Below, piece by piece: positions 3,447-50,532 of a DNA stretch of 64,000 bases. The notes beneath the pieces were generated by a model that was not told where the DNA came from, did not search any database, and saw only the letters and a list, made by a program, of their open reading frames with translations. The DNA lies in NCBI GenBank assembly GCA_036567965.1, contig DATCTN010000021.1, forward strand, positions 72,906 through 136,905, written 5' to 3'. The stretch is from Candidatus Kryptoniota bacterium. GTDB lineage: Bacteria > Bacteroidota > Ignavibacteria > Kryptoniales > JAKASW01. The position numbers and the translations under genes were made by a program. The first letter of the stretch is position 1; each line of letters starts with the position of its first letter.

Positions 3447-3448
3447 GT

Positions 3449-3479: not shown

Positions 3480-3531
3480 TAGTTGAGTTGTGTTTCTTCT
3501 ATCAATTGTCTCAACAAACCTAGAGGAGGTT

Positions 3532-4533
3532 ATGCTCATGTTGCGTTTGAGGTATCTGAAAGGATTGATGCTGGTAGCTCTTCTTGCAGTTACCACCGGC
3601 GGCTGTGGTGGATGCTTCGGCTATAATACGATGGGGATCCATCTTTTCTCCATGAAGGTCGAAGTGAAGGGACCGAATAACGTTGCTCTTGTGGGGGCGG
3701 TCGTGCACTGCAGCTGCGGCGAAACCGTTACTGTCGATACGAGCGGCATCGCCACACTTCATTTCTCCGATATGGGTCCGTACTACATCTCTGTTGAGTA
3801 CCAGGATAGAGTCATTTCATCGTACAATGTCTCGATGCCATCAGACGGAGGCAAGACACTCACGACGAATTATATGCCCGCGCCTGCCAACGCTGGAGAG
3901 AGTGCTCCATCCGGCGGCGGCGACAACAGCGGGTTGGCCATGATGGCTACACGGTTGTACCCCATACTGTTCCAGTATATGTTCAGCGCCTACGGATACA
4001 GCCTCGAGCTCGTTCCTTACCAGGCCGGCCAGTATACGAACTGGACGATGTCCGGCGAAAATGGACACGACTTCGAAACCCATAAGGCTTTTCTAACCCA
4101 GCTTGCGGACGGCAAGCAGTGGTGGCAGATGAATTACATCTCGAATAAGAAGGACACGATGGTAATTGAAGTCCTGTTCAGCGAAAAGCAGCAGTCAGTC
4201 AGGAGAATGAGGCAGAAGTGGGGTAATGATGCGCCGAAGGAAGTGCCTGTTACAGAGGGCTGGTACACATCGCCAATGCAATTAACTCCCGAATCAATTG
4301 ACGGCGCCGTGGTTAAAAAAGGCGTGAGCGTGACGGTAGCAGCCGGAACCTTCTCGTGTGATCAACTTGAGTTCGGCGTGAATGCCGGCATGACGCTGCG
4401 ACTCTGGAGGGCCGCCGGAGTCCCTGGAGGAGTCGTGAAGTATGAGATGGCGACTGACAAAGGGAAGACACTGTACTCGGGCGAACTTAATTCATTCGGT
4501 AGCGGAGCGATGACGAGTTTAGGCTCGTACTAA
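3532..4533 (+). CDS. Putative lipoprotein with N-terminal carboxypeptidase-regulatory-like domain
   Basis: Not recognised as a named family. The start at 3532 is chosen because GAGGAGG lies just upstream. A hydrophobic leader ends at the Cys-rich TTGGCGGC, giving a plausible lipoprotein cleavage site although the -3 residue is Thr. Residues about 38-90 look like a small beta-sandwich (NNVALVGAVV, TVDTSGIATLHF), as in carboxypeptidase regulatory domains. The rest has no motif I can name. It is monocistronic, with its own promoter candidate upstream and a strong terminator downstream. Confidence 0.75.
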   Translation: MLMLRLRYLKGLMLVALLAVTTGGCGGCFGYNTMGIHLFSMKVEVKGPNNVALVGAVVHCSCGETVTVDTSGIATLHFSDMGPYYISVEYQDRVISSYNVSMPSDGGKTLTTNYMPAPANAGESAPSGGGDNSGLAMMATRLYPILFQYMFSAYGYSLELVPYQAGQYTNWTMSGENGHDFETHKAFLTQLADGKQWWQMNYISNKKDTMVIEVLFSEKQQSVRRMRQKWGNDAPKEVPVTEGWYTSPMQLTPESIDGAVVKKGVSVTVAAGTFSCDQLEFGVNAGMTLRLWRAAGVPGGVVKYEMATDKGKTLYSGELNSFGSGAMTSLGSY

Positions 4534-4544
4534 ATGCCACAAAT

Positions 4545-4612
4545 AGAACTGCGCCCTCACTTATGCGTTTACCTCAAACGCAATGATGTGGGGGTGCGGT
4601 TCTAAATTTTTT
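4545..4612 (+). terminator. Rho-independent terminator after the lipoprotein gene
   Basis: A 16-bp stem with a few G-U pairs joins 4545-4560 (starting AGAACTGCGCCC) to 4588-4603 (ending GCGGTTCT). An inner 7-bp stem TGCGTTT/AAACGCA lies at 4564-4582. The structure is followed by AAATTTTTT. It is unusually long for an intrinsic terminator. Confidence 0.75.
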
Positions 4613-4742
4613 CGGGATTTTCCTTTGCAGCGAGACTTTGCTAACCTGCCGGATCTCCTGCCAACCAAAATTACCCGTCAAGCAGGCGGGACATTATCCT
4701 GCAATCTAGTTTGCTCCTGGAAATAACCGGCATTATTATCTT

Positions 4743-5513
4743 TTGCTGAAAATGTTCAGGACCAGGTTTGGTAAACAAATAGTCGCGGAATTTCTTCCGC
4801 CGGCTCGCTTTGCAACCAAGCAGAAAATCATAATCCTCTGCGACGGCATGCCCGGGATTCCCAGGAAGCAGCAGCTCGTTGAGTTCCTTTCAGCCAAAGG
4901 ATTTTGGGTAATATATCCTCGGTACCGCGGAGCATGGGAGAGCGGCGGTGAATTTCTGAAAGAGTCTCCGGAAAAGGATATTGCGATAATTCTCGACGCA
5001 CTCCCGAAAGGCTTTACAGAAACTGCATTCGGGAAAAAGTTCAAGCTGGTCCCGGATGAACTATACATCATTGGCGGAAGTTTTGGCGGAACTGTTTCTA
5101 TCCTTTGTTCGCTGGACGATCGAGTCAAGAAAGTTGTTGCGAATTGTCCGGTAGTCGACTGGAAGATTCTACCGTCCGAACAGAAGAAGGAGACGTCCGA
5201 AATCAAGTACTCGGACTACATCCGGTCCGCATTCGGGAACGGCTATCGTCTCTCTCAAAAAAATTGGAACAAGTTGTTTTCCGGAAAATTCTTTAATCCT
5301 TCATATCATAGTGATGAATTCGATGCGTCGAAAGTCCTTATGTTCCACACGAAGGACGATCCGTTTGTCCCTTGGAGAGACGTAAAGAGGTTTTCCGACA
5401 GGACCGGAATCGAACTGGTACTTCTTACTAAAGGCGGCCACCTGAGAACGGAATTCGTCGTGACAAAATACTGGGACAGGATCTCTCGCTTCTTCGCCCG
5501 GTCGGATCGCTGA
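4743..5513 (+). CDS. Alpha/beta hydrolase
   Basis: A probable cytoplasmic serine hydrolase of the dienelactone hydrolase/prolyl oligopeptidase-like group. The nucleophile elbow GGSFGG is at about residue 114. The acid is likely the Asp in FHTKDDPFVPW (about 205), and the histidine lies in KGGHLRTE near the end. There is no signal peptide. The start may be TTG 4743 or ATG 4752; neither has a clear ribosome-binding site. The substrate is unknown and the gene appears to stand alone. Confidence 0.8.
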   Translation: MLKMFRTRFGKQIVAEFLPPARFATKQKIIILCDGMPGIPRKQQLVEFLSAKGFWVIYPRYRGAWESGGEFLKESPEKDIAIILDALPKGFTETAFGKKFKLVPDELYIIGGSFGGTVSILCSLDDRVKKVVANCPVVDWKILPSEQKKETSEIKYSDYIRSAFGNGYRLSQKNWNKLFSGKFFNPSYHSDEFDASKVLMFHTKDDPFVPWRDVKRFSDRTGIELVLLTKGGHLRTEFVVTKYWDRISRFFARSDR

Positions 5514-5674
5514 ACGAATTTCAATTATCATCCGCGGTGAGGGGAACTTCTATTTTACCGTCTGGGTTGAGGCATACGATAATACGAGGGGAGTCGGCAA
5601 CCAATTATGACTATATCGACCGATTGGAACGAAAATTTCCGAATCTCGTTCCGCAGATTCGCTGATGACTTTCA

Positions 5675-8600
5675 TTGGAAACGAACTGCCGCTTGAGTCT
5701 CCCTGGATTGTTGATTTTTCTCAGATTGTTGTGCCTCGGCTGTCTGCTCTGCGCTACTCTCGCTCCTCAGCTCGCCCGCGCCCAGGAGAGAGACATACGG
5801 TTCCAGCATCTTTCAATAGAACAAGGGTTGTCGCAGAGCTCCGTCTTTTCAATCACCCAGGACCGGAGCGGCTATATGTGGTTCGCTACCCAGGACGGAC
5901 TCAACCGCTATGATGGATATTCGTTTGTCCATTATGAACATGACGACGGCGATTCCACCTCTCTCTCCGATAATTATGTAAATGTAGTTTTCATGGACCA
6001 CACTGGTACGCTATGGACGGGAACCAGGGGTGGAGGTGTCGACAGGTTCGTTCCTGCTACGGGAAGTTTCGTGCGCTACCGACACAGCTCAACAAGTGAA
6101 AACACAATCAGCGACGATGAGGTGAGATGCATATGTGAGGATCGTGACGGTACCCTTTGGGTGGGAACTTCGGGCGGCCTCGATCGCTACGACCGAGCGG
6201 CTGACAGATTCATCAGGTGCTCTCACAACCCGCGTGACGCCGCGAGCATTCCTCCAGGCCTTGTGGAATGTCTGTTCGAGGACGCGATAGGTAATTTGTG
6301 GATTGGGATGCTCGGATCGCTTGAAATCTTCGAGAAATCCACGGGAAAATTCTCACCGGTGGCTCTTCCCGTTCCGGGCACACTTTGCGTCTGGATATCC
6401 GAGGACGATGGCGGCCATATCTGGATCGCAATGCAGAATCAATTCTACATATATAAAGACGGTAAGTGGAGTCCCGCCTCAACGAAAATCAAGGGCGACA
6501 CGATTCAAATCATAAACAGAATCCTGAAGGATCGAGATGGTGTAATGTGGTACGGCGGGAACGGCGGCCTTCTACGCTACAATAAGCATAGGAATAAACT
6601 GGACAGGTTTACTAATATATCAAACGATCCATTGAGCTTAAGCGGAAATTCAATTTTGTCGCTGTACCAGGATAGGGAGGGAATTCTCTGGGTCGGGACA
6701 TATGATGGGGTCAACAAGTATGCGCCCGCGGAATTTAAGTTTCGACACGTGAAGCTGAGTCCGGATGTTGCCAAGCCCGAAGGTTGGAACAAGATCAGGA
6801 GCTTTTGCGAAGACCCGTACGGCAGAATCTGGGTCGCCACTCAGCAAGGGCTTATGACTTACGACCGAAAGAAAGACGTCCTGGCGCGCGTCGCGAACAA
6901 TTCCTGGTATCAATCTGCAACTACCCCGCGACTTATTTGGTCGCTCCTGGAAGACGAAACATACAAATTGCCGACGATCTGGGTCGGCACGAACGGAGAC
7001 GGCCTGATTAGAATGACTGTCGGTAAGAGCGGCTCGGAAGGATTCACCAGATTCATCCCACGTCGTGGAGATAATCACAGCATCAGTAGTCCATCGCCTG
7101 AAACGCTATACGAAACCCGTGATGGCACGCTGTGGATCGGGACGCTGTGGGAAGGACTGAATCGCTTCGATAAGAAGACAGGGACATTTACGCGTTACGT
7201 CAATAGCCCTTCGGATCCTGAGAGTCTCAGCGGTAACGAGGTGTGGTCCCTTTACCAGGACAGTTCCGGAAGCTTGTGGGTGGGCACAGGTGGCGATGGA
7301 CTCGACAAGCTCGACATCCCGAACGGACGATTCACCCGCTTCCGCCACGACCCGCGCGACCCATCGAGTCTGAGCGATGATAAAGTGACCGCGATCGTGG
7401 AAGGTAGGAACAGTTCTCTCTGGATCGGAACCTACTCAGGGCTGAATGAATTTGACACACGCTCCGGCAAGTTCCGGCACTACACTGTACGCGACGGTCT
7501 GCCGAACAATGTCGTGTACGGGATCGCGGACGATCATGAAGGCGATTTGTGGATCAGTACGAACAGCGGGTTGTCCCGATTCTCGATTTCGGATCACACT
7601 TTTAGAAACTACGATGCCGGTGACGGCCTCCAGAGCAACGAATTCAACCACGGTGCCGAGTATCTCACGCGGGAACGTGAACTTCTCTTCGGTGGAGTGA
7701 ACGGCTTCAGCATCTTCTACCCGGATAGTCTTCCAGAAAACAAAAACATTCCTGACGTGGTAATCACGGATTTCAAGATCTTCAACAAATCGGTGAGACC
7801 CGGCAACGGTCCTCTCACGAGCGACATAAGTGCCGCGAGTGAGGTGCGGCTATCCTACAACGACGCCGTCATCTCATTCGACTTCGCCGCTCTTGAATAC
7901 ACTAATCCCGAAAAGAACCGGTATGCGTACAAGATGGATGGCTTTGACAAGGACTGGGTTTATGCGGGATCACGGCGTGAAGCCACCTACACAAATCTCG
8001 ATCCGGGCAAATATGTTTTTGAAGTTAAAGCAGCGAACAGTGACGGACTCTGGGGCACAACTCCGAAGTCAATATCAATTCTGATATCGCCGCCGTTCTG
8101 GGCAACATGGTGGTTTCGGTCGGGTGTCGCGCTCATGTTCCTTTCTTTTGGTCCGCTCGTGTATCTCAAACGTGTCAGCGCACTAAAGAAGAAGCAGAAT
8201 CTTCAACAGGAATTCTCAAGGAGACTCATCGAGTCGCAGGAGGCGGAACGGAAGCGTGTTGCAGCAGAGCTTCACGACAGCATCGGCCAGGATCTGCTCG
8301 TTATCAAGAACAAGTTGTTGCTCGGTCTGCAATCTGGAAATAGTGCTGACGGGGGGTCAAGAGATTTCGAAGAAGTCGTCGAGCATGTTACCGGATCTAT
8401 AAAACATGTGCGGGAAATCTCAAGAAATCTTCGACCGATTCAACTTGATCAGATCGGACTCACCTCTGCGCTTGAGTCCGTGGTGGAGGTCGCAGCGGAA
8501 TCATCCCAAATTCAACCTACTTTACAGATCGATAACATTGACAATCTTCTGAGTAAAGAGAGCGAGATAAATTTTTTCCGTATTGTCCAGGAGAGCCTGA

Positions 8601-38661: not shown

Positions 38662-39975
38662 TCAGAGCCCGTACTTTTTCCGCTTTCGCCAGAGAGTGGC
38701 AGGATCTATTCCCAGAACTCTCGAGGCTTCCTCAACAGTCGCGGTCTCGTGGATAACGCGCGCGATGTAGTCCTTCTCCATTTCCTCAAGTGAGATGAGC
38801 CGTTTGGATTCCTCCCTGCTGAGCTCGTCTGGGAGATGGAACATCTCAATTTTCTTCCCGTGAGCCAGGAGAACCGCCCTCTCGATGACATTTTCGAGCT
38901 GACGGATGTTTCCGGGCCACTGGTAATCTGTGAGGAGTCTGAACGCTTCCGGACCTATCTCGGGAATAGAATCGCCGCCAAATTTCTTGATGAAGTGTTT
39001 GATGAGGACGGGAATATCATCGGGCCGTTCCCGCAACGGCGGGAGCCTCATTGTCACGCCGTTTACCCGGTAGTACAGGTCGTCTCTGAACCTTCCGCCT
39101 GCCAGTGCTTCCTTGAGGTCTCGGTTTGTCGCAGCGATGAATCGAACGTCTACTTTCATCGTCTGTGAATCACCGACGCGCTCGAACTCGCGGCTCTGCA
39201 GGAAGCGAAGGAGCTTCGCCTGTGTCGTCGTCGGGATTTCCGTTATCTCGTCGAGAAACACAGTCCCGCCGTCTGCCATTTCAAACCGACCCTGCCGGTC
39301 TTTCACGGCACCTGTAAACGAACCTTTGACATGGCCGAACAATTCGCTCTCGAGAAGGCTTTCTGAGAGCGCTGCGCAATTTACCGTCATGAAAGGCGCA
39401 GAACATCTTGAACTTGATTTGTGTATGAATTTCGCGAAGAGCTCCTTGCCCGTCCCGCTCTCACCTTCGATCAAAACGCTGATGTTCGTGTTTGCGATTT
39501 CGCGAGCCAGGTTAAGGACGGAAAGCATTTGCGGATTGATCGTCACGATGTCTTCAGCGGCTTCGTATTCCATCAGTTTCTGCTGAAGGTCCTTCAGTTC
39601 CTTCTGGAGCTTGAAATGTTCGAAGACTTTTTGAGCGAAATGCTGCAGCTCCTGAAAGTCGAAAGGTTTCTGAAGGTAGTCGTACGCTCCCTGCTTTATT
39701 GCCTGCACGGCAGTGTCGACTGAGCCGTGTGCCGTCACGATCACTGCGATTATGTCCGGACAGAATTTTTTGACCTCGTTGAGGAGATGCAGTCCGTCCA
39801 TCGGATACATTTTCAAATCGAAGAACCCGATATCGAATTGTTTCTGCGCCGCGACTCGAAGTGCTTCGTCCGGCTTCGACAACGCCGTGACTTCAAGCCC
39901 TATAGACTCGAGACAAATCTTCATAGTACGAAGAATATTGTGTTCGTCGTCGACTAGAAGTACTCTAGCGCTCAT
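38662..39975 (-). CDS. NtrC-family sigma-54 response regulator
   Basis: 437 residues. The receiver (1-120) has the phosphoacceptor in FFDLKMYPMDG. The AAA+ domain has Walker A GESGTGKE and Walker B GTVFLDEI. The sigma-54 contact loop reads GSFTGA instead of the usual GAFTGA. The C-terminal Fis-type helix-turn-helix is EEASRVLGIDPATLWRKRKK. It overlaps the upstream histidine kinase gene by 4 bases. It should activate sigma-54 promoters; targets are not visible here. Confidence 0.95.
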   Translation of the reverse strand: MSARVLLVDDEHNILRTMKICLESIGLEVTALSKPDEALRVAAQKQFDIGFFDLKMYPMDGLHLLNEVKKFCPDIIAVIVTAHGSVDTAVQAIKQGAYDYLQKPFDFQELQHFAQKVFEHFKLQKELKDLQQKLMEYEAAEDIVTINPQMLSVLNLAREIANTNISVLIEGESGTGKELFAKFIHKSSSRCSAPFMTVNCAALSESLLESELFGHVKGSFTGAVKDRQGRFEMADGGTVFLDEITEIPTTTQAKLLRFLQSREFERVGDSQTMKVDVRFIAATNRDLKEALAGGRFRDDLYYRVNGVTMRLPPLRERPDDIPVLIKHFIKKFGGDSIPEIGPEAFRLLTDYQWPGNIRQLENVIERAVLLAHGKKIEMFHLPDELSREESKRLISLEEMEKDYIARVIHETATVEEASRVLGIDPATLWRKRKKYGL

Positions 39976-41843
39976 GCGGGTATCTCTTTCTCGCTGGAAA
40001 CCCTGTTCTTGATGGGAATAGAAAAAGTGAACACACTGCCGATACCAACTTTGCTCTCAACTCCTATCCGCCCGCCATAAAGTTCGACAATCTCCTTGGC
40101 AATTGATAGTCCGAGTCCGACCGAGCCGGGCGACGGATTTGCGGAGTCCCTGAGCTGTACGAATTTATCGAAGACTTTCTGCAATTCATCCTCCTCTATT
40201 CCGCACCCTGTGTCTCGAACCGCAACAAGTAGATCGTCTCCGTTCGTTGTGGCGTCAATGGTAACGCTGCCGCCCGAGTCTGTGAATCGCAGGGCATTAG
40301 TTACCAGATTCGATATCACCCATGATAACTGCTGAAAGTCTGCAACGAATTCCGGGATGGCCTCATCAATGTTCAACGTGAGTCTCACATTCTTGTCCTT
40401 GAATTGCAGCAGCACCGGCTGGACTGAAAAATCTACAAGGGACTTCACGTCGATACGATCCTGCTTGATTTGAGTCCTGCCCGATTCCAGGCGGGAAAGC
40501 TGGAGAAGCTCTCTCACCAGCTTTGTGAGCCTTTCAGCGTCTTCCTTTGCTGCAGCAAGAAGTTCTCTTTGACCCTTGTTCACCCGGCCGACGTGTTCTT
40601 CTTTTAATATATCGAGCGTCATATTGATTGAAGTCAGGGGGGTCCTGAACTCGTGCGACACGCGGGCGAGAAACTCAGACTTCATCTTGTCGAGTTCTTT
40701 GAATTGGGTCACGTCCTGCAAAATGAGAATAACGCCGGTTACACTTCCGGTCTTGTCCTTGGAGGAGTTCAGCTTGATCCGGAAATATCTTTCTTCTCCG
40801 CCGAACGACATTTCAAAATACGGAGGGATATTCTTAAGTGACTCGCCTCCGATGCACCGGCTGACATAGTTCTGCAGGTCTTTGTTGCGCACGACATTTT
40901 GAAAAGCTTTTCCTGCTGACGCTTCCTCGGATACGTCAAAAAGCTCTTCAGCTAGCTGGTTCATCAGGACCACGTTCCGCTCGCTGTCCACTACAATGAT
41001 CGGATCGGAGATTGTCCCTACTATCGCCTCGGATTTTTTCTTTTCGGAGATCAGTTTTTCGATATTGATCTCTTCATATTTCGACAGGCGCTCTGCCATC
41101 CTGTTGAATTCGCGGCTCAACTCGCCGATTTCATCGTTGGAGCTGATATTTGCCCTGACGTCCAGCAGCCCCCTACCGAGTTTCCTTACAGTGTCGGTCA
41201 GCTTCTCCGCCGGCTCGAGTATGTACTGAGAAAATTGCCAGCTTGCCACTATGCTAAGTACGATTGCCAAAAGGGCCGCGCCCACTACTGCGACCGTTGC
41301 CTGAGTAGAGATGTCTCCCGCCTTTGTGTCAGTCTGTACCATGGCGTTATTGTTCATGTCGAGAAGCTGAGAGCAGTCTCCCTTGATCCTGTCGAAGATG
41401 GGTAGAATAGTTCTGCTGTGGTATTGTTGCGCGTATAAGTGACTGCGTGTAATGACGAGCCCGTACAGAATGTCCGTGGCATCCGAATACTTCTTGTAGT
41501 TCGCCTCTATATCTTTAAGTATGTCTATCGCGCGATCCGAAGCATTCGACCTCTCCTGAGCCTGCCTGAACCACACGAAAAAATCCGTGTGGTTGTTCGT
41601 GAAATCATCGTATCCTACATCGAGACTGCCATTCAACATTACCAGTTGTGAGCTGTTGTCCCGCTCGAGAGCGACCACCATGTTCTGGACCGCAATGACA
41701 TTCTGGTAATTCTGTTTCACCAGAGTCGTGATCGCTTGTGTCAGCTGATTGAAATTATAAATCGACCACACGCTGACAACGACGTTGATAACGACAAGGA
41801 CCGTGAATCCTGCTGCAACTTTGGCTCGAAGCGTGCTAAACAT
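39972..41843 (-). CDS. Membrane sensor histidine kinase with HAMP and PAS domains
   Basis: 623 residues. Two membrane helices (about 10-30 and 185-205) bracket a four-helix-type extracytoplasmic sensor. A HAMP domain (about 205-260), a PAS domain (about 265-375), HisKA with SHEFRTPLTSINM and HATPase with VGLGLSIAKEIVELYGG follow. It is the partner of the NtrC-family regulator. The ligand is unknown; the architecture is typical of stress or nutrient sensors. Confidence 0.93.
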   Translation of the reverse strand: MFSTLRAKVAAGFTVLVVINVVVSVWSIYNFNQLTQAITTLVKQNYQNVIAVQNMVVALERDNSSQLVMLNGSLDVGYDDFTNNHTDFFVWFRQAQERSNASDRAIDILKDIEANYKKYSDATDILYGLVITRSHLYAQQYHSRTILPIFDRIKGDCSQLLDMNNNAMVQTDTKAGDISTQATVAVVGAALLAIVLSIVASWQFSQYILEPAEKLTDTVRKLGRGLLDVRANISSNDEIGELSREFNRMAERLSKYEEINIEKLISEKKKSEAIVGTISDPIIVVDSERNVVLMNQLAEELFDVSEEASAGKAFQNVVRNKDLQNYVSRCIGGESLKNIPPYFEMSFGGEERYFRIKLNSSKDKTGSVTGVILILQDVTQFKELDKMKSEFLARVSHEFRTPLTSINMTLDILKEEHVGRVNKGQRELLAAAKEDAERLTKLVRELLQLSRLESGRTQIKQDRIDVKSLVDFSVQPVLLQFKDKNVRLTLNIDEAIPEFVADFQQLSWVISNLVTNALRFTDSGGSVTIDATTNGDDLLVAVRDTGCGIEEDELQKVFDKFVQLRDSANPSPGSVGLGLSIAKEIVELYGGRIGVESKVGIGSVFTFSIPIKNRVSSEKEIPA

Positions 41844-42108
41844 TTTGAAGATGTCCGGTTGTCATGAATAAGTTTACAAACCCAGCTCTAATTTGCAATC
41901 TACCTGCCGGTCTGACTCCCCATTTCGGGCCCATTTCTCAAGCCATTCTACATCTTCTGCGGTATATTTCCACCGAGGTTCATGGTAAAATGTCGCAGCG
42001 CAGACTTTTTGAGCATCGACCCGCATGATTTTGTTTGTATCACACTCGGTTTTTCAACCTTTTGCTCAATCATTAGAACCGGCACGGCTATTGACTAAGA
42101 GAGAAAAG

Positions 42109-42510
42109 ATGAAGACCAGGAAATCTGACCCCATTGTCGGAATTATGACGGACGAATCGGCCCTGGCCGAACTTCTTGAGAAGTTCCTTTCAAAGGAAGG
42201 CTTCAGCGTCAGCTTGGTGCCGAATGGGAAACCGGAGACAGAAGAAATATCTGTAATGGTATTCGCGCCTACGCGTGAGTTCAGCAAGACAGTAAATCTA
42301 TTCGAAGATTTGAAAAAGAGAGTGCCGACTCTGCTCGTACTTCAGTATGATGAAGCCGGAGTGGAAGCCGATGAGAATTCCATCGTCCTCGAGGAGCATC
42401 CCATTAATCTTAAGAAGCTCGGTCGGGCGGTCTCGTCACTCCTGAAGCGCGCGACCGCAGATCTCAAAGCAGATAAGAGAAAGTCGAAGGGCGAAGTTGT
42501 CGAAGAGTAA
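42109..42510 (+). CDS. Small degenerate-receiver-like protein
   Basis: 133 residues, soluble. The segment DPIVGIMTDESALAELLEKFL followed by GFSVSLVPNGK looks like the N-terminal part of a receiver domain, but the acidic pair and phosphoacceptor Asp are missing, and the tail is lysine-rich. It may be a pseudo-receiver. It is divergent from the histidine kinase gene at 39972-41843. ATG 42109 is preferred over the longer frame from 42025, whose extra leader has no support. Confidence 0.5.
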   Translation: MKTRKSDPIVGIMTDESALAELLEKFLSKEGFSVSLVPNGKPETEEISVMVFAPTREFSKTVNLFEDLKKRVPTLLVLQYDEAGVEADENSIVLEEHPINLKKLGRAVSSLLKRATADLKADKRKSKGEVVEE

Positions 42511-42579
42511 TCTTGCGGTCACTCCGATCAAAGTCTTCAACAGGCTGGTTATTGTGGAAGTTTATTTTGCGGGATTGAG

Positions 42580-42650
42580 TTTTGGGCTGCCGATTTCTAA
42601 AAATGCCACTCGCTCGGGGAAGGCACTGCCAACGATTCGGCGGCCCAAAA
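42580..42650. other. Large imperfectly paired hairpin in a 387-base gene-free stretch
   Basis: TTTTGGGCTGCCGA (42580-42593) pairs with TCGGCGGCCCAAAA (42637-42650) over 14 positions with one G-U pair. An inner TGCC/GGCA stem lies at 42604-42625. It could be a terminator working in both directions, a small RNA or a remnant of a palindromic element. The rest of 42511-42897 holds no gene; a CACTC/GAGTG hairpin sits near 42837-42851. Confidence 0.5.
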
Positions 42651-42897
42651 GTTTTAGGTAGAAGCTCAGCTTTTCCTCTTTCCTCCTCCTCCTGCTGCCG
42701 GAGAACTTAACGGGACTCTGGCAGCAGATCTTTTTTCATCCGTGTGGAAAGTTATCGCATAATGTGCCATAAGACCACACCAACATGTCGTGCAATCGCG
42801 ATCTACTCGCGTAATCTTTGAATATCTATGGTTTTTCACTCTTTTTCGAGTGTAGAAATTTTCAATGCGGCACACTCCTTGATCGTATACAAGCCAG

Positions 42898-43206
42898 ATG
42901 AAACCGGAAGAGCTTGTCACGCTCAATGAACTCGTGCTCAATAAGGTGAGAGAATCACTGTTGAGGAATCAGAAATCCATTGCTGGTAAGTCCAATCAAC
43001 AAATTGTCCAGGACGCAGCTTCACTCGACAGCGCTGACGTCAACGAACTACTGTTTGCGTTGAAGCGGATCGACAAAGGTACCTACGGGCAATGCGTAAT
43101 TTGCAGACATGACATACCGCTGCGTGTTCTCGAATCAAACCTGACTGCAAGACTGTGCATTTCGTGCGAAACTGCGATCAAGGAAAGAAGCGAGCCGGCC
43201 AGGTGA
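42898..43206 (+). CDS. DksA/TraR-type zinc-finger protein
   Basis: 102 residues: an N-terminal helical pair (about 1-65) and a C-terminal four-cysteine zinc finger, CVIC and CISC (about 71-93). The coiled-coil tip lacks the full DxxDxA of E. coli DksA; DSADVNELLFALKRID is what is seen. Such proteins bind RNA polymerase or act as small redox-sensitive zinc proteins. Its stop overlaps the GTG start of the 19-heme cytochrome, so the two are translationally coupled. Confidence 0.75.
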   Translation: MKPEELVTLNELVLNKVRESLLRNQKSIAGKSNQQIVQDAASLDSADVNELLFALKRIDKGTYGQCVICRHDIPLRVLESNLTARLCISCETAIKERSEPAR

Positions 43207-45884
43207 AGAACTCGGTTGTTCTCCTGGCGGGTGCCATCTTCAGCATTCTTGGAGCCTTCTCTTCGAACGCAGACGCTCAATCCATCGATGACTGTCTTGC
43301 ATGTCATTCAGACAGCACTCTTACTATGGTCAAAGCCGGCAGGACAATCAGTCTTTACGTCGATAGTTCGGCTTTCAAATCATCCACTCACGGAGATCAA
43401 ACGTGCGTCGACTGTCACGCAGGATTCGACCCGACAAACGTTCCTCATAAGAAAGACATCACACCTGTTGACTGCAACACTTGTCATGGGATTTCGTTCG
43501 GTGCGGGCACACCCACGAAATCGGCTCACGGTGCAGTCGAGTGCTACAGTTGTCATGGCAAACATGATATTCAACCCGCAAAGAATCTCTCTTCCAGCTC
43601 GACTTGCTTGTCATGTCATCCCGCTGAAAGAAAGTTCTTAAGTTCGCCGCATGCGATTGTTACTTCGGGAAAACCAGTTCCGGGCTGCGAGACCTGTCAC
43701 CAGAAGGCGCACGATGTCAGAATCTCAGTCGCGTTAAAAGGATTAACGAGCGACACGCTCTGCTCCCGATGTCATAAAGAAGAGAGAGAAGAATTAAAGG
43801 GAGGAATTCATGAAGGAGTTTTTGAGAAGGGAACTCTTTCTTGCACAACATGCCATTCACCTCACGATGCCACCGTATCAAGACTCTCTATTTCGCGAAA
43901 TGCGTGTTTCAGATGTCATACTGATAAGGAACTTTTCCGTGGCGTAAACTCGCACAATGGTCAGGACCTTACCAGCCTGGTCCAGTCTTACCAGCACAGT
44001 ATACACGTTGAGTCGCTTGGCAAGATTGGCAAGGGAGCCACATGCGTCGACTGTCATGGATCGCACCTAATCAGGCCGGCAAATGATCCTCAATCTCCTG
44101 TATCCAGATCTAATATTGTCTCGACTTGCGGGAGATGCCATGCAGATGTGAAGACGCACTATCTCAACTCCTCTCACGGAAAGGCTTTTGTTGCGGGTCT
44201 GGCACTAGCGCCTGTCTGCACGGACTGTCACAACGAGCACAGCATTAACTCGATTTCCGACGCGAATTCGCCGGTTAGTCGTGCAAATGAACCAAAAATC
44301 TGTCTCGACTGTCACCTGGGTAACAATGCTGTTCTTAAGTTGGTGGGAGTATCTCCGGCATTCCTTCAGAGTATCAAGTACAGCGTTCACCTTCAGGCAC
44401 TGTCGAAAGGGAATTTGAAAGCCGCAACCTGCAGTGACTGTCACGGCGCACATGACATGCTCCCGGCGGGCGATCCTAATTCAAAAGTTTTCAGGAACAA
44501 TATTCCGTCAACCTGCGGCCAGAAAGGATGTCATGAGAACGTAGGGTCTAAGTACTTTGCAGGTATCCACGGCAAAGCGATGGCGGAAGGAAATAGCGGA
44601 GCGCCCGTATGCACTGACTGCCATGGAGATCATCAGATACTTGCACAGAGCAATCCTCAGTCGAGTGTCTCGGGCGGTAACGTGGTACAGGTTTGTTCAA
44701 ACTGTCACGGCTCGCTGGACCTGACGCAGCGTTACGGACTTCCCAGTCATGCAGTGGGGAGTTACATGGATAGTTACCATGGACTGGCGACGACCGGCGG
44801 ACTTACGACTGTTGCCAACTGCGCCAGCTGTCATGGTGCACATGATATCAGGCCTTCATCTGATCCCGCGTCGCCGATAAACAAGGCTAACCTTGCAGCG
44901 ACTTGCGGCAAGTGTCATCCCGGAGCTGATGCACAATTCGCGGCTGCGGCCGTGCATACTCTTCCCGAATCGAAGAAAGATCCGCTTCTTTACTGGATTT
45001 CTCAAGTTTACGCGGTTCTCATTTTCGGAATCATTGGTCTGATGGTGATCCACAATACATTCGATTTCTTCAAGAAATCAAAGAGGAAGCTCAAAGAGCG
45101 AAGGAATCCCGCAGATCATGAACGAATCGGTTCGAAACTCTACTTGAGGATGAACCGAAGCGAGCGCATGCAGCATTGGGCGCTACTCATAAGTTTCACT
45201 CTTCTCGTGTTCACAGGCTTTATGCTGAAATTCCCTGACTCATGGTGGGTGAGAATGATTCGCGATATTGGCGGCGGCGGTGAAAGAGTTATTGAACTTC
45301 GCAGTCTTCTGCACAGGATCAGTGCAATCGTGCTTATCGCCACTGCATTTTTTCATGTATTTTATATATCTTTTACGCAGGAAGGACGGTTGTTTATTCG
45401 CAATATGGTTCCGAAGCTGAAAGACGCGAGGGATGTCGCCCAGATCGTGAAATATTATCTGGGCGTCGGGAAGGAGAAGCCACGCTTCGATCGGTTCAGC
45501 TATATTGAGAAGGCTGAGTATTGGGCACTCGTTTGGGGAACGGTTGTGATGGTAGCTACCGGACTGATCCTCTGGTTCGATAATGTTTCTCTCGGTATCT
45601 TCACGAAACTCGGTCTGGACGCGGCGACACTCATTCATTACTACGAAGCCATCCTCGCTTCGCTCGCGATCGTCGCGTGGCATATGTATTTCGTTATTTT
45701 CAATCCTGATGTTTACCCCATGAACCTCTCGTGGTTATTCGGTACCATCACTGAAGAGGAAATGCTGGAAGAGCATCCCCTTGAGCTCGAGAGATTGAAG
45801 ATTGAGAGCGAGGTTTCCGAAGACATAATTGTGGAAAATGGAACACTCCAAAGGAGAGATGATGAAGCAGACGTCAGCAATTAG
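43203..45884 (+). CDS. 19-heme cytochrome c fused to membrane cytochrome b (CbcL-like quinol oxidoreductase)
   Basis: 893 residues. GTG 43203 is chosen because it overlaps the DksA-like stop and gives a signal peptide ending SNADAQ. Residues about 28-580 contain 18 CxxCH heme sites and one CX4CH site (CGQKGCH), in repeating units ending CHGxH or CHGAHD. The C-terminal part (about 600-860) has four to five membrane helices with histidines in MQHWAL, LLHRIS, FFHVFY, LIHYYE and AWHMYF suitable for b-type hemes. This is the arrangement of CbcL-like inner-membrane quinol oxidoreductases that feed periplasmic cytochromes, with more c-hemes than CbcL. Confidence 0.9.
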   Translation: MKNSVVLLAGAIFSILGAFSSNADAQSIDDCLACHSDSTLTMVKAGRTISLYVDSSAFKSSTHGDQTCVDCHAGFDPTNVPHKKDITPVDCNTCHGISFGAGTPTKSAHGAVECYSCHGKHDIQPAKNLSSSSTCLSCHPAERKFLSSPHAIVTSGKPVPGCETCHQKAHDVRISVALKGLTSDTLCSRCHKEEREELKGGIHEGVFEKGTLSCTTCHSPHDATVSRLSISRNACFRCHTDKELFRGVNSHNGQDLTSLVQSYQHSIHVESLGKIGKGATCVDCHGSHLIRPANDPQSPVSRSNIVSTCGRCHADVKTHYLNSSHGKAFVAGLALAPVCTDCHNEHSINSISDANSPVSRANEPKICLDCHLGNNAVLKLVGVSPAFLQSIKYSVHLQALSKGNLKAATCSDCHGAHDMLPAGDPNSKVFRNNIPSTCGQKGCHENVGSKYFAGIHGKAMAEGNSGAPVCTDCHGDHQILAQSNPQSSVSGGNVVQVCSNCHGSLDLTQRYGLPSHAVGSYMDSYHGLATTGGLTTVANCASCHGAHDIRPSSDPASPINKANLAATCGKCHPGADAQFAAAAVHTLPESKKDPLLYWISQVYAVLIFGIIGLMVIHNTFDFFKKSKRKLKERRNPADHERIGSKLYLRMNRSERMQHWALLISFTLLVFTGFMLKFPDSWWVRMIRDIGGGGERVIELRSLLHRISAIVLIATAFFHVFYISFTQEGRLFIRNMVPKLKDARDVAQIVKYYLGVGKEKPRFDRFSYIEKAEYWALVWGTVVMVATGLILWFDNVSLGIFTKLGLDAATLIHYYEAILASLAIVAWHMYFVIFNPDVYPMNLSWLFGTITEEEMLEEHPLELERLKIESEVSEDIIVENGTLQRRDDEADVSN

Positions 45885-46227
45885 CGACAAGCTAAGGCTC
45901 CATTTCGAGTCTGCCCTCAAAAAGAGAATCAGCCGTGTTCTGGAATTGATGTATGCGAACCCGTCTGAACTTGTAGATTTGGAGAGTGGAGAAAAGTATA
46001 TTTGCAGCGTTTGCGACATGGAGAACAAGCGATGTGAAAGGGAACCCGATTATAGATGTGAGATTGCGAGGAAATGCGAGACCGAGTTCAAGGAACTTGA
46101 GCTCGCAGTGGACCGACTGCACAGCGGCTCTTTCGGATTCTGTATGCGGTGCTCCGCTTTCATCGGCATCGAGGAACTCGAGAAAGAGCCCACGAGAGTC
46201 TTCTGCGAATCCTGCGCGTCTGATTAA
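45862..46227 (+). CDS. Second DksA/TraR-type zinc-finger protein
   Basis: 121 residues. An N-terminal CSVCDMENKRCEREPDYRCE cluster and a C-terminal four-cysteine finger with CMRC and CESC. ATG 45862 is chosen because AAGGAG lies five bases upstream; it overlaps the end of the cytochrome gene by 23 bases. Only weakly similar to the first such protein. The role may be regulatory or redox-linked to the cytochromes. Confidence 0.65.
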   Translation: MKQTSAISDKLRLHFESALKKRISRVLELMYANPSELVDLESGEKYICSVCDMENKRCEREPDYRCEIARKCETEFKELELAVDRLHSGSFGFCMRCSAFIGIEELEKEPTRVFCESCASD

Positions 46228-46328
46228 CAGTTCATATTTAATTTCCACCGATTGCGTTATACGAAATTGTGTTGCAACTTTAGGAAAATCTATAGACATA
46301 AATACCTTAACAAAATGGAGTTAGCGCT

Positions 46329-46880
46329 ATGCGAACCCTTAAACTCGTAATCATGTCGATGTTCCTGATGTCGGTCGTTTCTTATGCAGCTGATACCAAG
46401 CATCAATACGTCGGCGTGCAAGTTTGTAAGATGTGCCACCAGACCGAGAAGAACGGACAGCAGTTCCAGAAATGGCAAGCGAGCAAACACGCCGAAGCAA
46501 TGAAAGTGCTTTCAACTCCTGAGGCGCAGAAGATCGCGGATGCGAAGGGAATAAAAGGTAAAGCGTCCGATGCGAAAGAATGTGTCGAATGTCATGAAAC
46601 CGGATATGACGCCGAAGCATCTATGCTTGGACCGAAGTTCAGCAAAGACGACGGTGTGCAATGCGAATCCTGCCACGGACCCGGAAAAGACTATATGTCA
46701 ATGGCTGTGATGAAGGATCGACAGAAAGCTGTCGCAGCCGGTCTTAACCTGGTTTCAGCTTCCGATGGCAGCGCGGAAAAACTTTGTGATACCTGCCACA
46801 ACAAAAAGAGCCCGACCTTCAAGGCTTTTGATTTCAAGAAGATGTGGGCGCAGATAGCTCATCCGGCGCCGAAGCAGTAG
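46329..46880 (+). CDS. Tetraheme cytochrome c554-like protein
   Basis: 183 residues with a signal peptide ending VSYAAD. Four CxxCH sites are CKMCH, CVECH, CESCH and CDTCH. The order YVGVQVCKMCHQ, the FQKWQASKHAEAMKVL segment and CHGPGKDY follow the cytochrome c554 family pattern of nitrifiers and sulfate reducers. It is probably a periplasmic electron carrier between the cytochrome b complex and the outer-membrane conduit. GGAG lies about 8 bases before the ATG. A possible promoter is TTG 46267 with TATAGACA at 46291-46298. Confidence 0.88.
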   Translation: MRTLKLVIMSMFLMSVVSYAADTKHQYVGVQVCKMCHQTEKNGQQFQKWQASKHAEAMKVLSTPEAQKIADAKGIKGKASDAKECVECHETGYDAEASMLGPKFSKDDGVQCESCHGPGKDYMSMAVMKDRQKAVAAGLNLVSASDGSAEKLCDTCHNKKSPTFKAFDFKKMWAQIAHPAPKQ

Positions 46881-46916
46881 GCGTAACTCTTTTCATTCCA
46901 TAAAGGAAGGTGGGTT

Positions 46917-48371
46917 GTGAAGGAATCATCACTGACGATCCCGAGGAGGCGTGGTATGCCCGGTCCTGTATGCAACGGATCGGGTTGCGGCGGGCCCGAA
47001 CAGCTGGACTGCACTGACGCAAGGAGTGGATCATACCGCCCAGGAATAAATCGGGGAATCCGCCGGATCTCCCGACTGCTTCTCTTATCTCTCGCCGCAC
47101 TTGGTGGCATTTATTCTGTTGATGCTGCCCGCGCGCAGACGTTGAGCGGCAGGTTCGTCACGACTTTCTACTCATACCAGCAATACGACACGACCGGCGC
47201 ATCCAAGCTTAGCCTGCGCGGATTTGAAGCACTGCAGCTTAATTTTGGGCAAGGGAATTATCAGTTGCATACATACCTCCTCGGTACAACCGATTTCATC
47301 ACGAGTCAACCTGGCGATCCTCGGCTCCGTGCGGGCAATCTCTATATCGAGGGACGAAACATCGGCGACTTCCTCACTTTGAAACTTGGAAGGCAGCCGA
47401 CATTCCAGAGAGTGGGCGTGTCATCATTCGACGGGCTGAGCGCGGATGCGAAGTTCCTTGACAATAAGATTACTGTCTCCGCGTTCGGTGGAGCGCTGCC
47501 TCCCACTGATGAGAACTTTAATTTGAACTCCTCACCGAAGGACAACTTGCTTTACGGCGCCCAAGCCTACTACTCGCCGTTCGACAATTTTCGTGTAGGA
47601 GGCGCATATGTTGACAGGAACTTCAAACCAGACAGCTACTGGGCTGTCAGACGCGATACTCTGAACGCTCCTGACGACAGCAGACTTGTTTATATTGATC
47701 CGACATCTGTAGCAAGTGAGTTCGTGTCTGGCGATATGTTCTACTACAACCAGCAGGTGTCAGGTTACCTGAGGCTCGATTACGATTTGAACTTTGACGA
47801 ATTCAACAGGACGGAAGCATCGTTCAGATATTCACCCACAATAAGCGTCTCCGCAAATGTCGAATATTTCCATCGTGATTCGAGGCTGCCTTTCAACTCA
47901 ATCTTTTCAGTTTTCGACCATAGTGGTACAGACGAGTATGATGCGGGACTTACGTACATGTTTACGAGAGATATGAGTGCGTTCGGCTCGATAAGCAAGA
48001 TTTTTTACGCGGGCGACAATTCAACCCAATTCACGATCGGGACGAACATCTATCTTTTTTCTCTTAACTTCTCGCATAACGACGGCTTCGCGGGACAGCT
48101 GAACGGACTCAGCGCTCAGCTGATTTATCCGCTCCTCGATCGCAAGGTGATGCTCATCGGTTCAGCGTCTGCAACTGACTACAAGATTCTGCAATCCCTC
48201 TCCTCGACGAACCGACTCTATACCGGCGAGCTCGGGATTTCCTATCGTCCGTTTAACCTTCTATCGCTCGATGTTCAAGGACAATATCTGCAGGATCCGG
48301 TTTACAAAAACGATTTCAGGGGATACCTGCGGGCGAACTACTACTTCTTCGACAATCTCGGTGCTCGTTGA
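46917..48371 (+). CDS. Outer-membrane beta-barrel protein of a porin-cytochrome conduit
   Basis: 484 residues. After a long N-terminal leader (see finding) a hydrophobic signal LLLLSLAALGG ends VDAARAQ (about residue 73). The rest has alternating aromatic/polar strands (FVTTFYSYQQY, YLRLDYDLNFDEF, FRYSPTISVSANVEYF) and no globular motif, as in outer-membrane barrels of about 20-26 strands. It is followed by two multiheme cytochromes, the layout of porin-cytochrome electron conduits. Start GTG 46917 has AAGGAAGG upstream, but the 49-residue leader before the signal is unusual. Confidence 0.75.
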   Translation: MKESSLTIPRRRGMPGPVCNGSGCGGPEQLDCTDARSGSYRPGINRGIRRISRLLLLSLAALGGIYSVDAARAQTLSGRFVTTFYSYQQYDTTGASKLSLRGFEALQLNFGQGNYQLHTYLLGTTDFITSQPGDPRLRAGNLYIEGRNIGDFLTLKLGRQPTFQRVGVSSFDGLSADAKFLDNKITVSAFGGALPPTDENFNLNSSPKDNLLYGAQAYYSPFDNFRVGGAYVDRNFKPDSYWAVRRDTLNAPDDSRLVYIDPTSVASEFVSGDMFYYNQQVSGYLRLDYDLNFDEFNRTEASFRYSPTISVSANVEYFHRDSRLPFNSIFSVFDHSGTDEYDAGLTYMFTRDMSAFGSISKIFYAGDNSTQFTIGTNIYLFSLNFSHNDGFAGQLNGLSAQLIYPLLDRKVMLIGSASATDYKILQSLSSTNRLYTGELGISYRPFNLLSLDVQGQYLQDPVYKNDFRGYLRANYYFFDNLGAR

Positions 48372-48382
48372 TGGAGGTGCAC

Positions 48383-49642
48383 ATGAAAAGTTTCAGATCG
48401 TTCGGAATCGTCGGGCTGGTCGCGCTTCTGTCAATTTCCAATCTAATTGCTTCGAAGGACGCGCCGGCGGTCGATAATTCCAAACTCATAAAGTTCTCAC
48501 ACAGTAAACATGTGAATGATGTCGGCGTCGCATGCGCAGATTGCCATACCGCAGTGACGTCCAGCTCGAAAGAGACCGATTTCCTTCTGCCCACGATGGA
48601 AACGTGCTACACTTGCCACGATCAATCGTCGACAAGCTGCACATTCTGTCACACTTCGTCGGATTCAACAACCTATCAGGATTTTGTTCAGACGAAAAGT
48701 GAAGTCTACTTCTCCCACAAACAGCATGCAGGCGACCTAAAGTTGAAGTGCGAGACTTGTCACCAGGGATTGGATAAAGTCGCCTACTCGTCTGAAGATC
48801 CCGATGCGCTCCCGAAAATGGAGCTCTGCACGGTATGCCACGGTCAGGGAGAGACCAATGTTGATGTAAAAAAAGTGGAGCATGCGGTCGTAGCTGCGCC
48901 CGGTGCCTGCGAGAACTGCCACAAGGATCTTACGAAACTTGTGCCGGCGAGTCACCGCCAACCGGATTTCCGCACGCAGCATAAGGACTTTGTGAATGCG
49001 AGCGGACCACAGAACGATTGCAAATCTTGCCACTCGTCGACGTCTTGTCAGGAATGCCATGACGCCTCCAACATGGCGAAGGATCTGACTCCCGGCCAGC
49101 TTTACGTACCGTCTACACCCTCGCTTTCGCCTCTCACGACTCATAAGAATACCACCGAGGAACGCGTCCATCCGATGGACTATAGATTCACGCATTCCAT
49201 CGACGCTAAGGGGCGCGAGAGCAACTGCTACACATGCCATGACGAGAGGACCTTCTGCGTGCAGTGCCACTCGTCCGAGGCAAACGGCGAGCGCATCAAA
49301 CCGGTGTGGCATGATGGAGGAGATTTTATCACTTTCGGGGTCGGAAGCGGAGGCGGGAGACATGCTCAGTACGCACGAAAAGATATCGAGAGTTGCGCGA
49401 GCTGTCACGACTCGCAGGGTGCCGATCCCACGTGCATAACCTGCCACAACGATCCTGACGGCATTCGAGGAAACGATCCGAAAACCCATCCAGCTTTCTT
49501 CATGCACGATGTTGAAGGGAACTGGCACACAGATGCTGGATCCGTTTGTTACACATGCCACACCGATGCCAACGCCCATCCGGGTGGAAGACCCGGTATA
49601 GGCTTCTGTGGCTACTGCCACGGCAGCAAACCGGGAGACTGA
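48383..49642 (+). CDS. 14-heme periplasmic cytochrome c
   Basis: 419 residues. ATG 48383 is chosen because GGAGGTG lies just upstream, and a signal peptide ends near NLIAS. Fourteen CxxCH sites are visible, including CADCH, CYTCH, CTFCH, CETCH, CTVCH, CENCH, CKSCH, CQECH, CYTCH, CVQCH, CASCH, CITCH, CYTCH and CGYCH. It lacks a lipobox, so a soluble periplasmic or barrel-inserted location is likely. The start overlaps the barrel gene's stop region within 12 bases. Confidence 0.9.
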   Translation: MKSFRSFGIVGLVALLSISNLIASKDAPAVDNSKLIKFSHSKHVNDVGVACADCHTAVTSSSKETDFLLPTMETCYTCHDQSSTSCTFCHTSSDSTTYQDFVQTKSEVYFSHKQHAGDLKLKCETCHQGLDKVAYSSEDPDALPKMELCTVCHGQGETNVDVKKVEHAVVAAPGACENCHKDLTKLVPASHRQPDFRTQHKDFVNASGPQNDCKSCHSSTSCQECHDASNMAKDLTPGQLYVPSTPSLSPLTTHKNTTEERVHPMDYRFTHSIDAKGRESNCYTCHDERTFCVQCHSSEANGERIKPVWHDGGDFITFGVGSGGGRHAQYARKDIESCASCHDSQGADPTCITCHNDPDGIRGNDPKTHPAFFMHDVEGNWHTDAGSVCYTCHTDANAHPGGRPGIGFCGYCHGSKPGD

Positions 49643-49644
49643 CA

Positions 49645-50532
49645 ATGAAAAACCGTTTGAGATTCTTCCTAGCTATCCTGATCGCTGCGGCATTCGGAGC
49701 TTGTAGCAAACTGCAGAATAACGCACTCGCGCCTGTCCAATCGACCGGCGACATTCATCCGGCTGGCTGGACTCTGATTACCTCTCCGAATTTTCATGGG
49801 AAGTACATCAAGACAAACAAATACGACTTGAGCACATGTGAATCCTGCCACGGAACTGATCTTAAAGGGGGGATGACGCAGAAGTCGTGCTACAAATGCC
49901 ATGACGGCGCGTCCGGACCTCTCTCCTGCAACACGTGTCACGGAAGCAACCTTAATCCGGCGCCGCCTTCGGATCTGGCAGGCGACACGCTGACCTCGGC
50001 CGCTGGAGTTGGAGCGCACCAATCGCACCTTGCCGGTAGCGACTTTCTTTCTTCTGTCCAGTGCTCTTCATGTCATATCGTGCCACAAAGCGCGGCTCCG
50101 GGCGTTCATCCTGCCGGTACCGGAAAGGCTTTGATCGTTTTTTCAAATGTGGCAGTCACACAAACAAACACACCAGGGTCACGTTATTACGACAGCACAA
50201 TGGCGACGATTCGCCCGGTTCCTTCTTTCAATCCGCAGACTCTGCAATGTTCGAACACTTATTGCCACGGCAATTTCAAGGGCGGCAATAATTTCACACC
50301 TACCTGGACAAGTGTGGGCATGAATCAAGATGCTTGCGGGACATGTCATGGTACAGCGTCGAATCCGGCTCCATCGACATCAATTCATGAAGGCGCTGTA
50401 TATCAGGGACCATCGTCTCAGAATTGTTACTTCTGTCACGAGCCGATGATGGGTCCCAACGGTATCCAGGACAGCTCCATGCATGTTACCGGCCAGCTCA
50501 CGCTCTATGGGAGACAGGTAAGCGAGTGGTGA
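49645..50532 (+). CDS. 7-heme cytochrome c lipoprotein
   Basis: 295 residues. ATG 49645 is chosen because the lipoprotein leader AAAFGAC (Cys about residue 20) follows it. Six CxxCH sites and one CX4CH site (CSNTYCH) are visible. The mix of CxxCH and CxxxxCH motifs is a mark of the Geobacter-type CxxxxCH cytochrome group. Lipid anchoring with the preceding barrel suggests a surface-exposed terminal electron donor. It ends the cytochrome operon, just before a terminator. Confidence 0.88.
   Translation: MKNRLRFFLAILIAAAFGACSKLQNNALAPVQSTGDIHPAGWTLITSPNFHGKYIKTNKYDLSTCESCHGTDLKGGMTQKSCYKCHDGASGPLSCNTCHGSNLNPAPPSDLAGDTLTSAAGVGAHQSHLAGSDFLSSVQCSSCHIVPQSAAPGVHPAGTGKALIVFSNVAVTQTNTPGSRYYDSTMATIRPVPSFNPQTLQCSNTYCHGNFKGGNNFTPTWTSVGMNQDACGTCHGTASNPAPSTSIHEGAVYQGPSSQNCYFCHEPMMGPNGIQDSSMHVTGQLTLYGRQVSEW

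What the first reader, a model, noticed from the sequence alone, without database searches (positions are those of the whole stretch)
42898..50532. Porin-cytochrome electron conduit joined to a CbcL-like quinol oxidoreductase
Seven genes in one direction: DksA-like, a 19-heme cytochrome c fused to cytochrome b, DksA-like, a tetraheme c554-like protein, an outer-membrane barrel, a 14-heme cytochrome and a 7-heme lipoprotein. This gives 19+4+14+7 = 44 c-type heme sites and a route from inner membrane to cell surface. It suggests respiration on extracellular minerals or partners. The order and the combination with two zinc-finger proteins are not a standard layout I know.
Basis: partly seen in the sequence, partly recalled or inferred. 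Interest (0 to 1): 0.75.

Follow-up and report, generated by a model that had tools for sequence, protein, structure and literature searches.

The report
Known-type bacterial electron wire, new switches
These genes encode a chain of heme proteins and an outer-membrane pore that most likely carries respiratory electrons out of the cell; the wiring is a type already known from related bacteria (Ignavibacteria), but its control region carries a conserved folded RNA and two zinc-finger regulators that appear not to have been described for such genes.

Summary
In detail: seven co-directional genes at 42898-50532 with 19+4+14+7 = 44 heme motifs (two are CX4CH). The 484-codon protein is an outer-membrane barrel (AlphaFold pLDDT 89, 22 strands); the lipoprotein has Ser, not Asp, after the lipidated Cys. 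Best reading: an extracellular electron transfer conduit made of a CbcL-like quinol oxidoreductase, tetraheme shuttle, porin/14-heme pair and surface lipoprotein.

The layout is not new. The order c554-like, porin, 14-heme, 6+1-heme lipoprotein is the ordinary cassette of class Ignavibacteria (porin beside the 14-heme gene in 79/80 loci, lipoprotein in 76/80) and matches the Ignavibacterium album pcc cluster described in 2014. CbcL-type genes sit nearby in 35/49 long loci.

What looks new is the control region, confined to this genus. A 73-nt folded RNA element occurs once per genome in 13/13 congeners, only at this operon, and in 0/48 other Ignavibacteria; Rfam has no match. In 12/13 a covarying intrinsic terminator follows. 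Two DksA-like zinc-finger genes flank cbcL, one with four extra cysteines. RNA attenuation of the operon is my inference, untested. Direction of electron flow is unproven.

The parts
42025..42510 (+). small receiver-like ORF just upstream; similar small ORFs (31-48% identity) lie upstream of cbcL in congeners
   Evidence: No Pfam or NCBIfam hit; synteny
42579..42651 (+). element A: conserved structured RNA, 14-bp basal stem enclosing a conserved internal sequence
   Evidence: Aligned in 12 genomes, 95% column identity, every basal-stem change keeps pairing; one copy per genome in 13/13 congeners, 0/48 others; no Rfam match
42672..42690 (+). conserved CU-rich tract preceding the terminator
   Evidence: Alignments
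42691..42736 (+). element B: intrinsic-terminator-like hairpin plus U tract
   Evidence: Two-sided changes at 6 of 13 pairs, 0/500 shuffles reach the covariation score; U tract
42742..42780 (+). element C: conserved block GTGTGG...CCACAC (promoter, operator or RNA; unresolved)
   Evidence: Alignments; R2 model (spanning B and C) hits 13/13 congeners at this operon
42868..42883 (+). CGGCACA-N3-CTTGAW, conserved about 15 nt before the dksA1 start; resembles a sigma-54 -24/-12 site but has GA instead of GC
   Evidence: Conserved in 11/11 upstream regions; a degenerate copy in a twelfth
42898..43206 (+). dksA1: DksA/TraR-like C4 zinc-finger protein, 102 aa
   Evidence: NCBIfam DksA_like E 1.4e-10, below equivalog cut-off; present before cbcL in 12 of 13 congeners
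43203..45884 (+). cbcL-like: signal peptide, 19-heme domain fused to FdnI/HydC-type cytochrome b
   Evidence: PF01292 E 1.3e-17, PF14522/PF14537; all four FdnI heme-b histidines aligned
45859..46227 (+). dksA2: DksA-like zinc finger with an extra CX2CX7CX7C cluster where the coiled-coil tip would be
   Evidence: NCBIfam DksA_like E 5.1e-9; 13/13 congeners at this position; extra cysteines in the family
46329..46880 (+). tetraheme cytochrome c554-like periplasmic protein with signal peptide
   Evidence: PF13435 E 1.1e-17; 1bvb cytochrome c554 E 4e-8
46917..48371 (+). outer-membrane beta-barrel (22 strands), the porin of the conduit; about 40 extra residues before the signal peptide
   Evidence: AlphaFold pLDDT 89; Foldseek/VIA matches to outer-membrane barrels; no Pfam family
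48383..49642 (+). 14-heme periplasmic cytochrome, presumed to thread the barrel
   Evidence: 14 CXXCH; at least 12 further invariant His in 54 sequences; profile hits to Geobacter c7-type repeats 3ov0 E 7e-29 and weakly to 6r2q_A E 2e-4
49645..50532 (+). heptaheme lipoprotein (6 CXXCH + 1 CX4CH), presumed outer-membrane/surface
   Evidence: TIGR01904 Geobacter CxxxxCH/CxxCH domain 49.5 bits, cut-off 27; lipobox-type Cys followed by Ser across the family

Best explanation
The locus is an Ignavibacterium-type porin-cytochrome (Pcc) extracellular electron transfer operon. The CbcL-like protein takes electrons from menaquinol through its two b hemes to 19 periplasmic c hemes; the tetraheme protein shuttles them across the periplasm; the 14-heme protein inside the 22-strand barrel carries them through the outer membrane; the heptaheme lipoprotein passes them to minerals, electrodes or partner cells. 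Outward flow (anaerobic respiration) is more likely than inward. Shown here: gene content, heme motifs, b-heme ligands, barrel fold, lipobox, conserved cassette. Inferred: complex formation, quinol activity, electron path and direction. In this genus the operon appears to be regulated by a structured leader RNA, a terminator and two DksA-like proteins; that is also inferred.
For: Domain hits; confident barrel; conserved +2 Ser lipobox; cassette neighbours in 79/80, 76/80 and 70/80 class loci, porin homolog in 69/100 relatives; the same gene set reported for I. album, including a 14-heme, 400-residue periplasmic cytochrome and atypical motifs in the outer-membrane cytochrome (PMC4245776); CbcL/MtrH/MtoC family spans 3-23 hemes (PMC6295460); Melioribacter roseus of the same class is reported to reduce Fe(III) and to encode a pcc system (PMC6137239); no RuBisCO large-subunit hit in this genome, which weakly disfavours RuBisCO-based Fe(II)-oxidising autotrophy.
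Against: No sequence link of this barrel to Geobacter or Shewanella porins could be shown. I. album itself carries the cluster but is described in PMC4245776 as not reducing solid Fe(III)/Mn(IV) oxides, so the natural acceptor is open. The 14-heme model is poor beyond its N-terminal part (mean pLDDT 63). The genome also holds an alternative complex III-like cluster with a heme-copper oxidase, so inward flow from an external donor to O2 is possible.
Confidence: 0.78

Rival explanations
1. The same conduit runs inward: it oxidises external Fe(II), a cathode or partner cells and reduces the quinone pool through the CbcL/MtoC-like protein, with O2 as terminal acceptor.
For: CbcL/MtrH/MtoC homologs occur in both Fe(III) reducers and Fe(II) oxidisers without a distinguishing feature (PMC6295460); the genome has a heme-copper oxidase and an alternative complex III-like cluster.
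Against: No RuBisCO; cultured Melioribacter is an Fe(III) reducer (PMC6137239); an ImcH-like protein, a type so far linked only to quinol oxidation, is also encoded in the genome.
Confidence: 0.17
2. The cytochromes are not an outer-membrane conduit but serve a periplasmic reductase or oxidase, with the barrel an unrelated transport porin.
For: The tetraheme protein is cytochrome c554-like, and the N-terminal part of the 14-heme protein resembles the ActA heme subunit of alternative complex III.
Against: Barrel and 14-heme gene are adjacent in 79/80 loci; no terminal reductase gene in the operon; the lipoprotein gene directly follows in 76/80.
Confidence: 0.05
3. For the leader only: elements A-C are the 3' end and terminator of the small upstream gene plus an ordinary promoter, without a regulatory RNA.
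For: B has the form of an intrinsic terminator; in G004, A and B are 3 kb apart, so A need not work through B.
Against: A has a long conserved internal sequence unlike a terminator, is more conserved among congeners (about 92% mean pairwise) than the proteins that follow, and in G004 lies in front of an extra cytochrome gene at the operon head; the basal-stem 5' arm pairs with the terminator 3' arm better than 92-98% of shuffles in each sequence.
Confidence: 0.45

Closest known systems
Ignavibacterium album JCM 16511 pcc cluster IALB_1837-1840 (Shi et al. 2014, PMC4245776)
   Same: Periplasmic c-cytochrome, porin, 400-residue 14-heme periplasmic cytochrome and outer-membrane cytochrome with atypical motifs; same class of bacteria
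   Different: Here the cluster is joined to a fused 19-heme CbcL, two DksA-like genes and a conserved leader RNA. I. album sequence was not in hand, so identity to it was not measured
Geobacter Pcc complexes (OmbB-OmaB-OmcB and relatives)
   Same: Porin, periplasmic multiheme cytochrome and outer-membrane multiheme cytochrome; the lipoprotein here carries the Geobacter CxxxxCH/CxxCH domain
   Different: The barrel shows no detectable sequence relation here; the periplasmic cytochrome has 14 hemes, not 8
MtrCAB of Shewanella
   Same: Same working principle of a heme chain inside a barrel
   Different: Barrel of about 22 strands, not the 28 reported for MtrB; 14-heme inner cytochrome, not 10
CbcL/MtrH/MtoC quinol oxidoreductases
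   Same: N-terminal multiheme domain and C-terminal FdnI/HydC-type cytochrome b with conserved heme ligands
   Different: 19 hemes instead of 9 in G. sulfurreducens CbcL, though within the reported 3-23 range
cGAMP (GEMM-Ib) riboswitches upstream of Geobacter cytochrome genes (PMC6456294)
   Same: Structured leader with terminator in front of extracellular electron transfer genes
   Different: No Rfam match, so element A is not a recognisable GEMM RNA; ligand, if any, unknown; single copy per genome
DksA/TraR zinc-finger transcription factors
   Same: C4 zinc finger at the C-terminal end
   Different: Scores far below DksA equivalog cut-offs; dksA2 has four extra cysteines in the region of the tip

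Membership tests
Porin-cytochrome (Pcc) gene cluster | gene for a porin-like outer-membrane barrel | tested here: met
   AlphaFold pLDDT 89, 22 strands; leading structural matches are outer-membrane barrels
Porin-cytochrome (Pcc) gene cluster | adjacent periplasmic multiheme cytochrome | tested here: met
   14 CXXCH, N-terminal hydrophobic signal segment; adjacent in 79/80 loci
Porin-cytochrome (Pcc) gene cluster | adjacent outer-membrane multiheme cytochrome | tested here: met
   Lipobox-type Cys with Ser at +2, 6 CXXCH + 1 CX4CH; surface exposure itself not testable
Porin-cytochrome (Pcc) gene cluster | sequence homology to described Pcc porins | tested here: inconclusive
   No Pfam or NCBIfam hit, none among solved structures; I. 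album sequence not at hand; PMC4245776 itself places the I. album porin apart from the other groups
Porin-cytochrome (Pcc) gene cluster | complex formation and trans-outer-membrane electron transfer | not testable with these tools
   Needs biochemistry
Mtr (MtrB-type) conduit | 28-strand barrel | tested here: not met
   22 strands in the predicted model
CbcL/MtrH/MtoC | exported N-terminal multiheme domain, 3-23 motifs | tested here: met
   19 motifs after a signal segment
CbcL/MtrH/MtoC | C-terminal HydC/FdnI-like b cytochrome with conserved heme-ligand histidines | tested here: met
   PF01292 E 1.3e-17; H658, H704, H812, H827 align with FdnI H18, H57, H155, H169
CbcL/MtrH/MtoC | six transmembrane helices | tested here: inconclusive
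   Simple hydropathy finds five strong segments in the C-terminal part
CbcL/MtrH/MtoC | quinol oxidation or quinone reduction | not testable with these tools
   Needs an enzyme assay
DksA (equivalog) | score above curated cut-off | tested here: not met
   41.4 and 36.4 bits against a cut-off of 105
DksA/TraR superfamily | C4 zinc finger | tested here: met
   CxxC...CxxC conserved in both proteins across congeners
GEMM (c-di-GMP/cGAMP) riboswitch or any Rfam family | match to a family covariance model | tested here: not met
   No match at E<=1 over the window leader and three relatives

The most novel reading that the evidence does not exclude
Element A is a new class of cis-regulatory RNA (an aptamer or protein-binding leader) that controls an extracellular electron transfer operon by attenuation at terminator B, working together with a DksA variant whose tip carries a 4-cysteine, possibly metal- or redox-sensing, cluster.
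Probability: 0.3. Interest if true: 0.75.

Novelty: new variant of a known kind. Interest (0 to 1): 0.5.

Why it matters
It shows that the Ignavibacterium-type conduit is a near-fixed cassette of a whole bacterial class, found beside interchangeable inner-membrane entry modules (CbcL, ImcH-like, Rieske/cytochrome b with an 11-heme protein). This genome appears to have one such outer-membrane exit but three possible entries, which resembles the use of CbcL and ImcH at different potentials in Geobacter. If the leader RNA is a true switch, it would give a testable link between a cellular signal and extracellular respiration in a lineage known here only from metagenome-assembled genomes.

Tried and rejected
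Porin against solved structures by sequence gave only unrelated or no hits, singly and as a profile. Lipoprotein against solved structures gave nothing. The 14-heme model was too weak for a fold assignment beyond an ActA-like N-terminal part. Pairing of the purine loop of element A with the CU-rich tract was tested and is no better than shuffles, so rejected. Sigma-54 site: conserved, but its score is reached by up to 27% of shuffled upstream regions and the -12 GC is GA, so left open. A coding reading of element A was rejected because the window copy differs by indels and the downstream frame is not conserved. A pattern search for the loop missed even the window copy because of one indel; the covariance model replaced it. 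The promoter/terminator scan of the region found fewer sites than its shuffles and, with its short-loop rule, did not list hairpin B. No paper found for Kryptonia plus porin plus cytochrome, or for Stygiobacter plus cytochrome.
Full report
OBSERVATION. The seven genes exist at the stated coordinates, on one strand, with gaps or overlaps of -26 to +101 nt. Heme motifs are 19 (18 CXXCH + 1 CX4CH), 4, 14 and 7 (6 + 1 CX4CH), 44 in all. Both CX4CH motifs recur in congeners.

PROTEINS. CbcL-like: a signal segment, 19 hemes, then a PF01292 cytochrome b whose four histidines align with H18, H57, H155 and H169 of FdnI in 1kqf (that these are the heme-b ligands is from my own knowledge). c554-like: PF13435 and cytochrome c554 1bvb. 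Porin: a 64-sequence alignment gave a model with pLDDT 89 and 22 long strands; the leading structural matches are outer-membrane barrels, though no sequence family is known. 14-heme protein: 14 motif histidines plus at least 12 further invariant histidines in 54 relatives, consistent with bis-His electron-transfer hemes; profile matches to c7-type repeat proteins (3ov0, a Geobacter protein to my knowledge) and, weakly, to chain A of 6r2q, which to my knowledge is the MtrCAB complex although the record names it otherwise. Lipoprotein: TIGR01904 above cut-off; lipobox-type Cys followed by Ser in 46 of the 49 relatives that fit a simple pattern, and in nearly all the rest by eye.

RELATIVES. The window lies in a 4.1-Mb genome; close relatives include contigs labelled Bacteroidetes and Candidatus Kryptoniota, and more distant ones Candidatus Kryptonium, Melioribacteraceae and Ignavibacteriales. 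The porin has a homolog in 69 of 100 relatives. Of 80 loci in named genomes, chosen by the 14-heme protein, 79 have the porin directly before it, 76 the lipoprotein directly after it and 70 a c554-like gene nearby. This is the arrangement published for I. album (IALB_1840-1837), including a 14-heme, 400-residue cytochrome. The layout is therefore ordinary for the class.

INNER-MEMBRANE MODULES. Among 49 long loci, 35 have a CbcL-type gene, 18 an ImcH-like one, 13 a Rieske/cytochrome b set and 14 a NapC-type 17-18-heme protein near the cassette (families). The window genome has CbcL here, an ImcH-like protein on contig C30 and Rieske + cytochrome b + 11-heme + c554-like genes on contig C28: one porin of this family, three possible entries. 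In G034 the CbcL parts are two separate genes.

CONTROL REGION. Upstream of dksA1 the congeners share conserved blocks in otherwise diverged DNA. Element A (42579-42651) has 95% column identity, folds into a 14-bp stem with an inner helix, and all basal-stem changes keep pairing, using G-U on the operon's strand. These are one-sided changes, so covariation support for A is weak. A model of it finds one place per genome in 13/13 congeners, always at this operon, and none in 48 other genomes. One congener, G005, was not in the model and is an independent hit. The higher score on the + strand is partly by construction. Rfam has no match. About 40 nt after A comes a terminator-like hairpin with two-sided changes at 6 of 13 pairs (0/500 shuffles reach the score), found with element C in 13/13 and followed by U8 in G005. 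The 5' arm of A's stem can pair with the terminator's 3' arm (-11.9 to -15 kcal/mol; 2-8% of shuffles as good), which would make an antiterminator; this is a modest argument. In G004 an extra 19-heme gene and cytochrome b gene lie between A and B, and A is then directly in front of that cytochrome gene. The leader from A to B folds better than all 200 shuffles.

DKSA-LIKE PAIR. dksA2 is in 13/13 congeners between the inner-membrane and outer-membrane parts; dksA1 is before cbcL in 12 of 13 (not found in G006). Both fall far below DksA cut-offs. dksA2 and distant homologs carry four extra cysteines where the coiled-coil tip would be; a metal or redox role is inference.

DIRECTION. Outward flow is favoured by relatives that reduce Fe(III) (PMC6137239) and by the absence of RuBisCO, but CbcL/MtoC proteins are found in organisms of both kinds, and the genome has a heme-copper oxidase.

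VERDICT. A real and well-supported electron conduit, a member of a known kind in a known layout; the genus-specific RNA leader and DksA-like pair make it a variant worth follow-up.

Noticed in passing
window 38662-41843 (-): A histidine kinase and a sigma-54-type response regulator are encoded divergently from the operon; ORFs of the same size and place are seen beside it in many congeners.
   Followed up: partly
L178 (G000:C28), 3448-7019: Rieske, cytochrome b, 11-heme and c554-like genes form a separate cluster in this genome; in other Ignavibacteria the same module sits beside the porin cassette.
   Followed up: yes
L213 5677-7170 (G000:C30): ImcH-like 6+1-heme NapC-type protein, away from other heme genes in this genome.
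   Followed up: partly
L216 (G000:C30) and L214 (G000:C27): Alternative complex III-like cluster with heme-copper oxidase, and a second cluster with a 5-heme protein and a molybdopterin-type oxidoreductase, judged from ORF content.
   Followed up: no
window 46917-47135: The porin frame has about 40 residues before its signal peptide, with a conserved start region in several congeners but variable sequence after it.
   Followed up: partly
L068 1754-8519 (G004): An extra 19-heme cytochrome and cytochrome b pair lies between element A and elements B-C.
   Followed up: partly
L075 6522-11133 and similar in L076, L077, L078: Some congeners carry a four-gene insert (cytochrome b, 9-heme, cytochrome b, NapC-type 18-heme) after cbcL that the window genome lacks.
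   Followed up: partly
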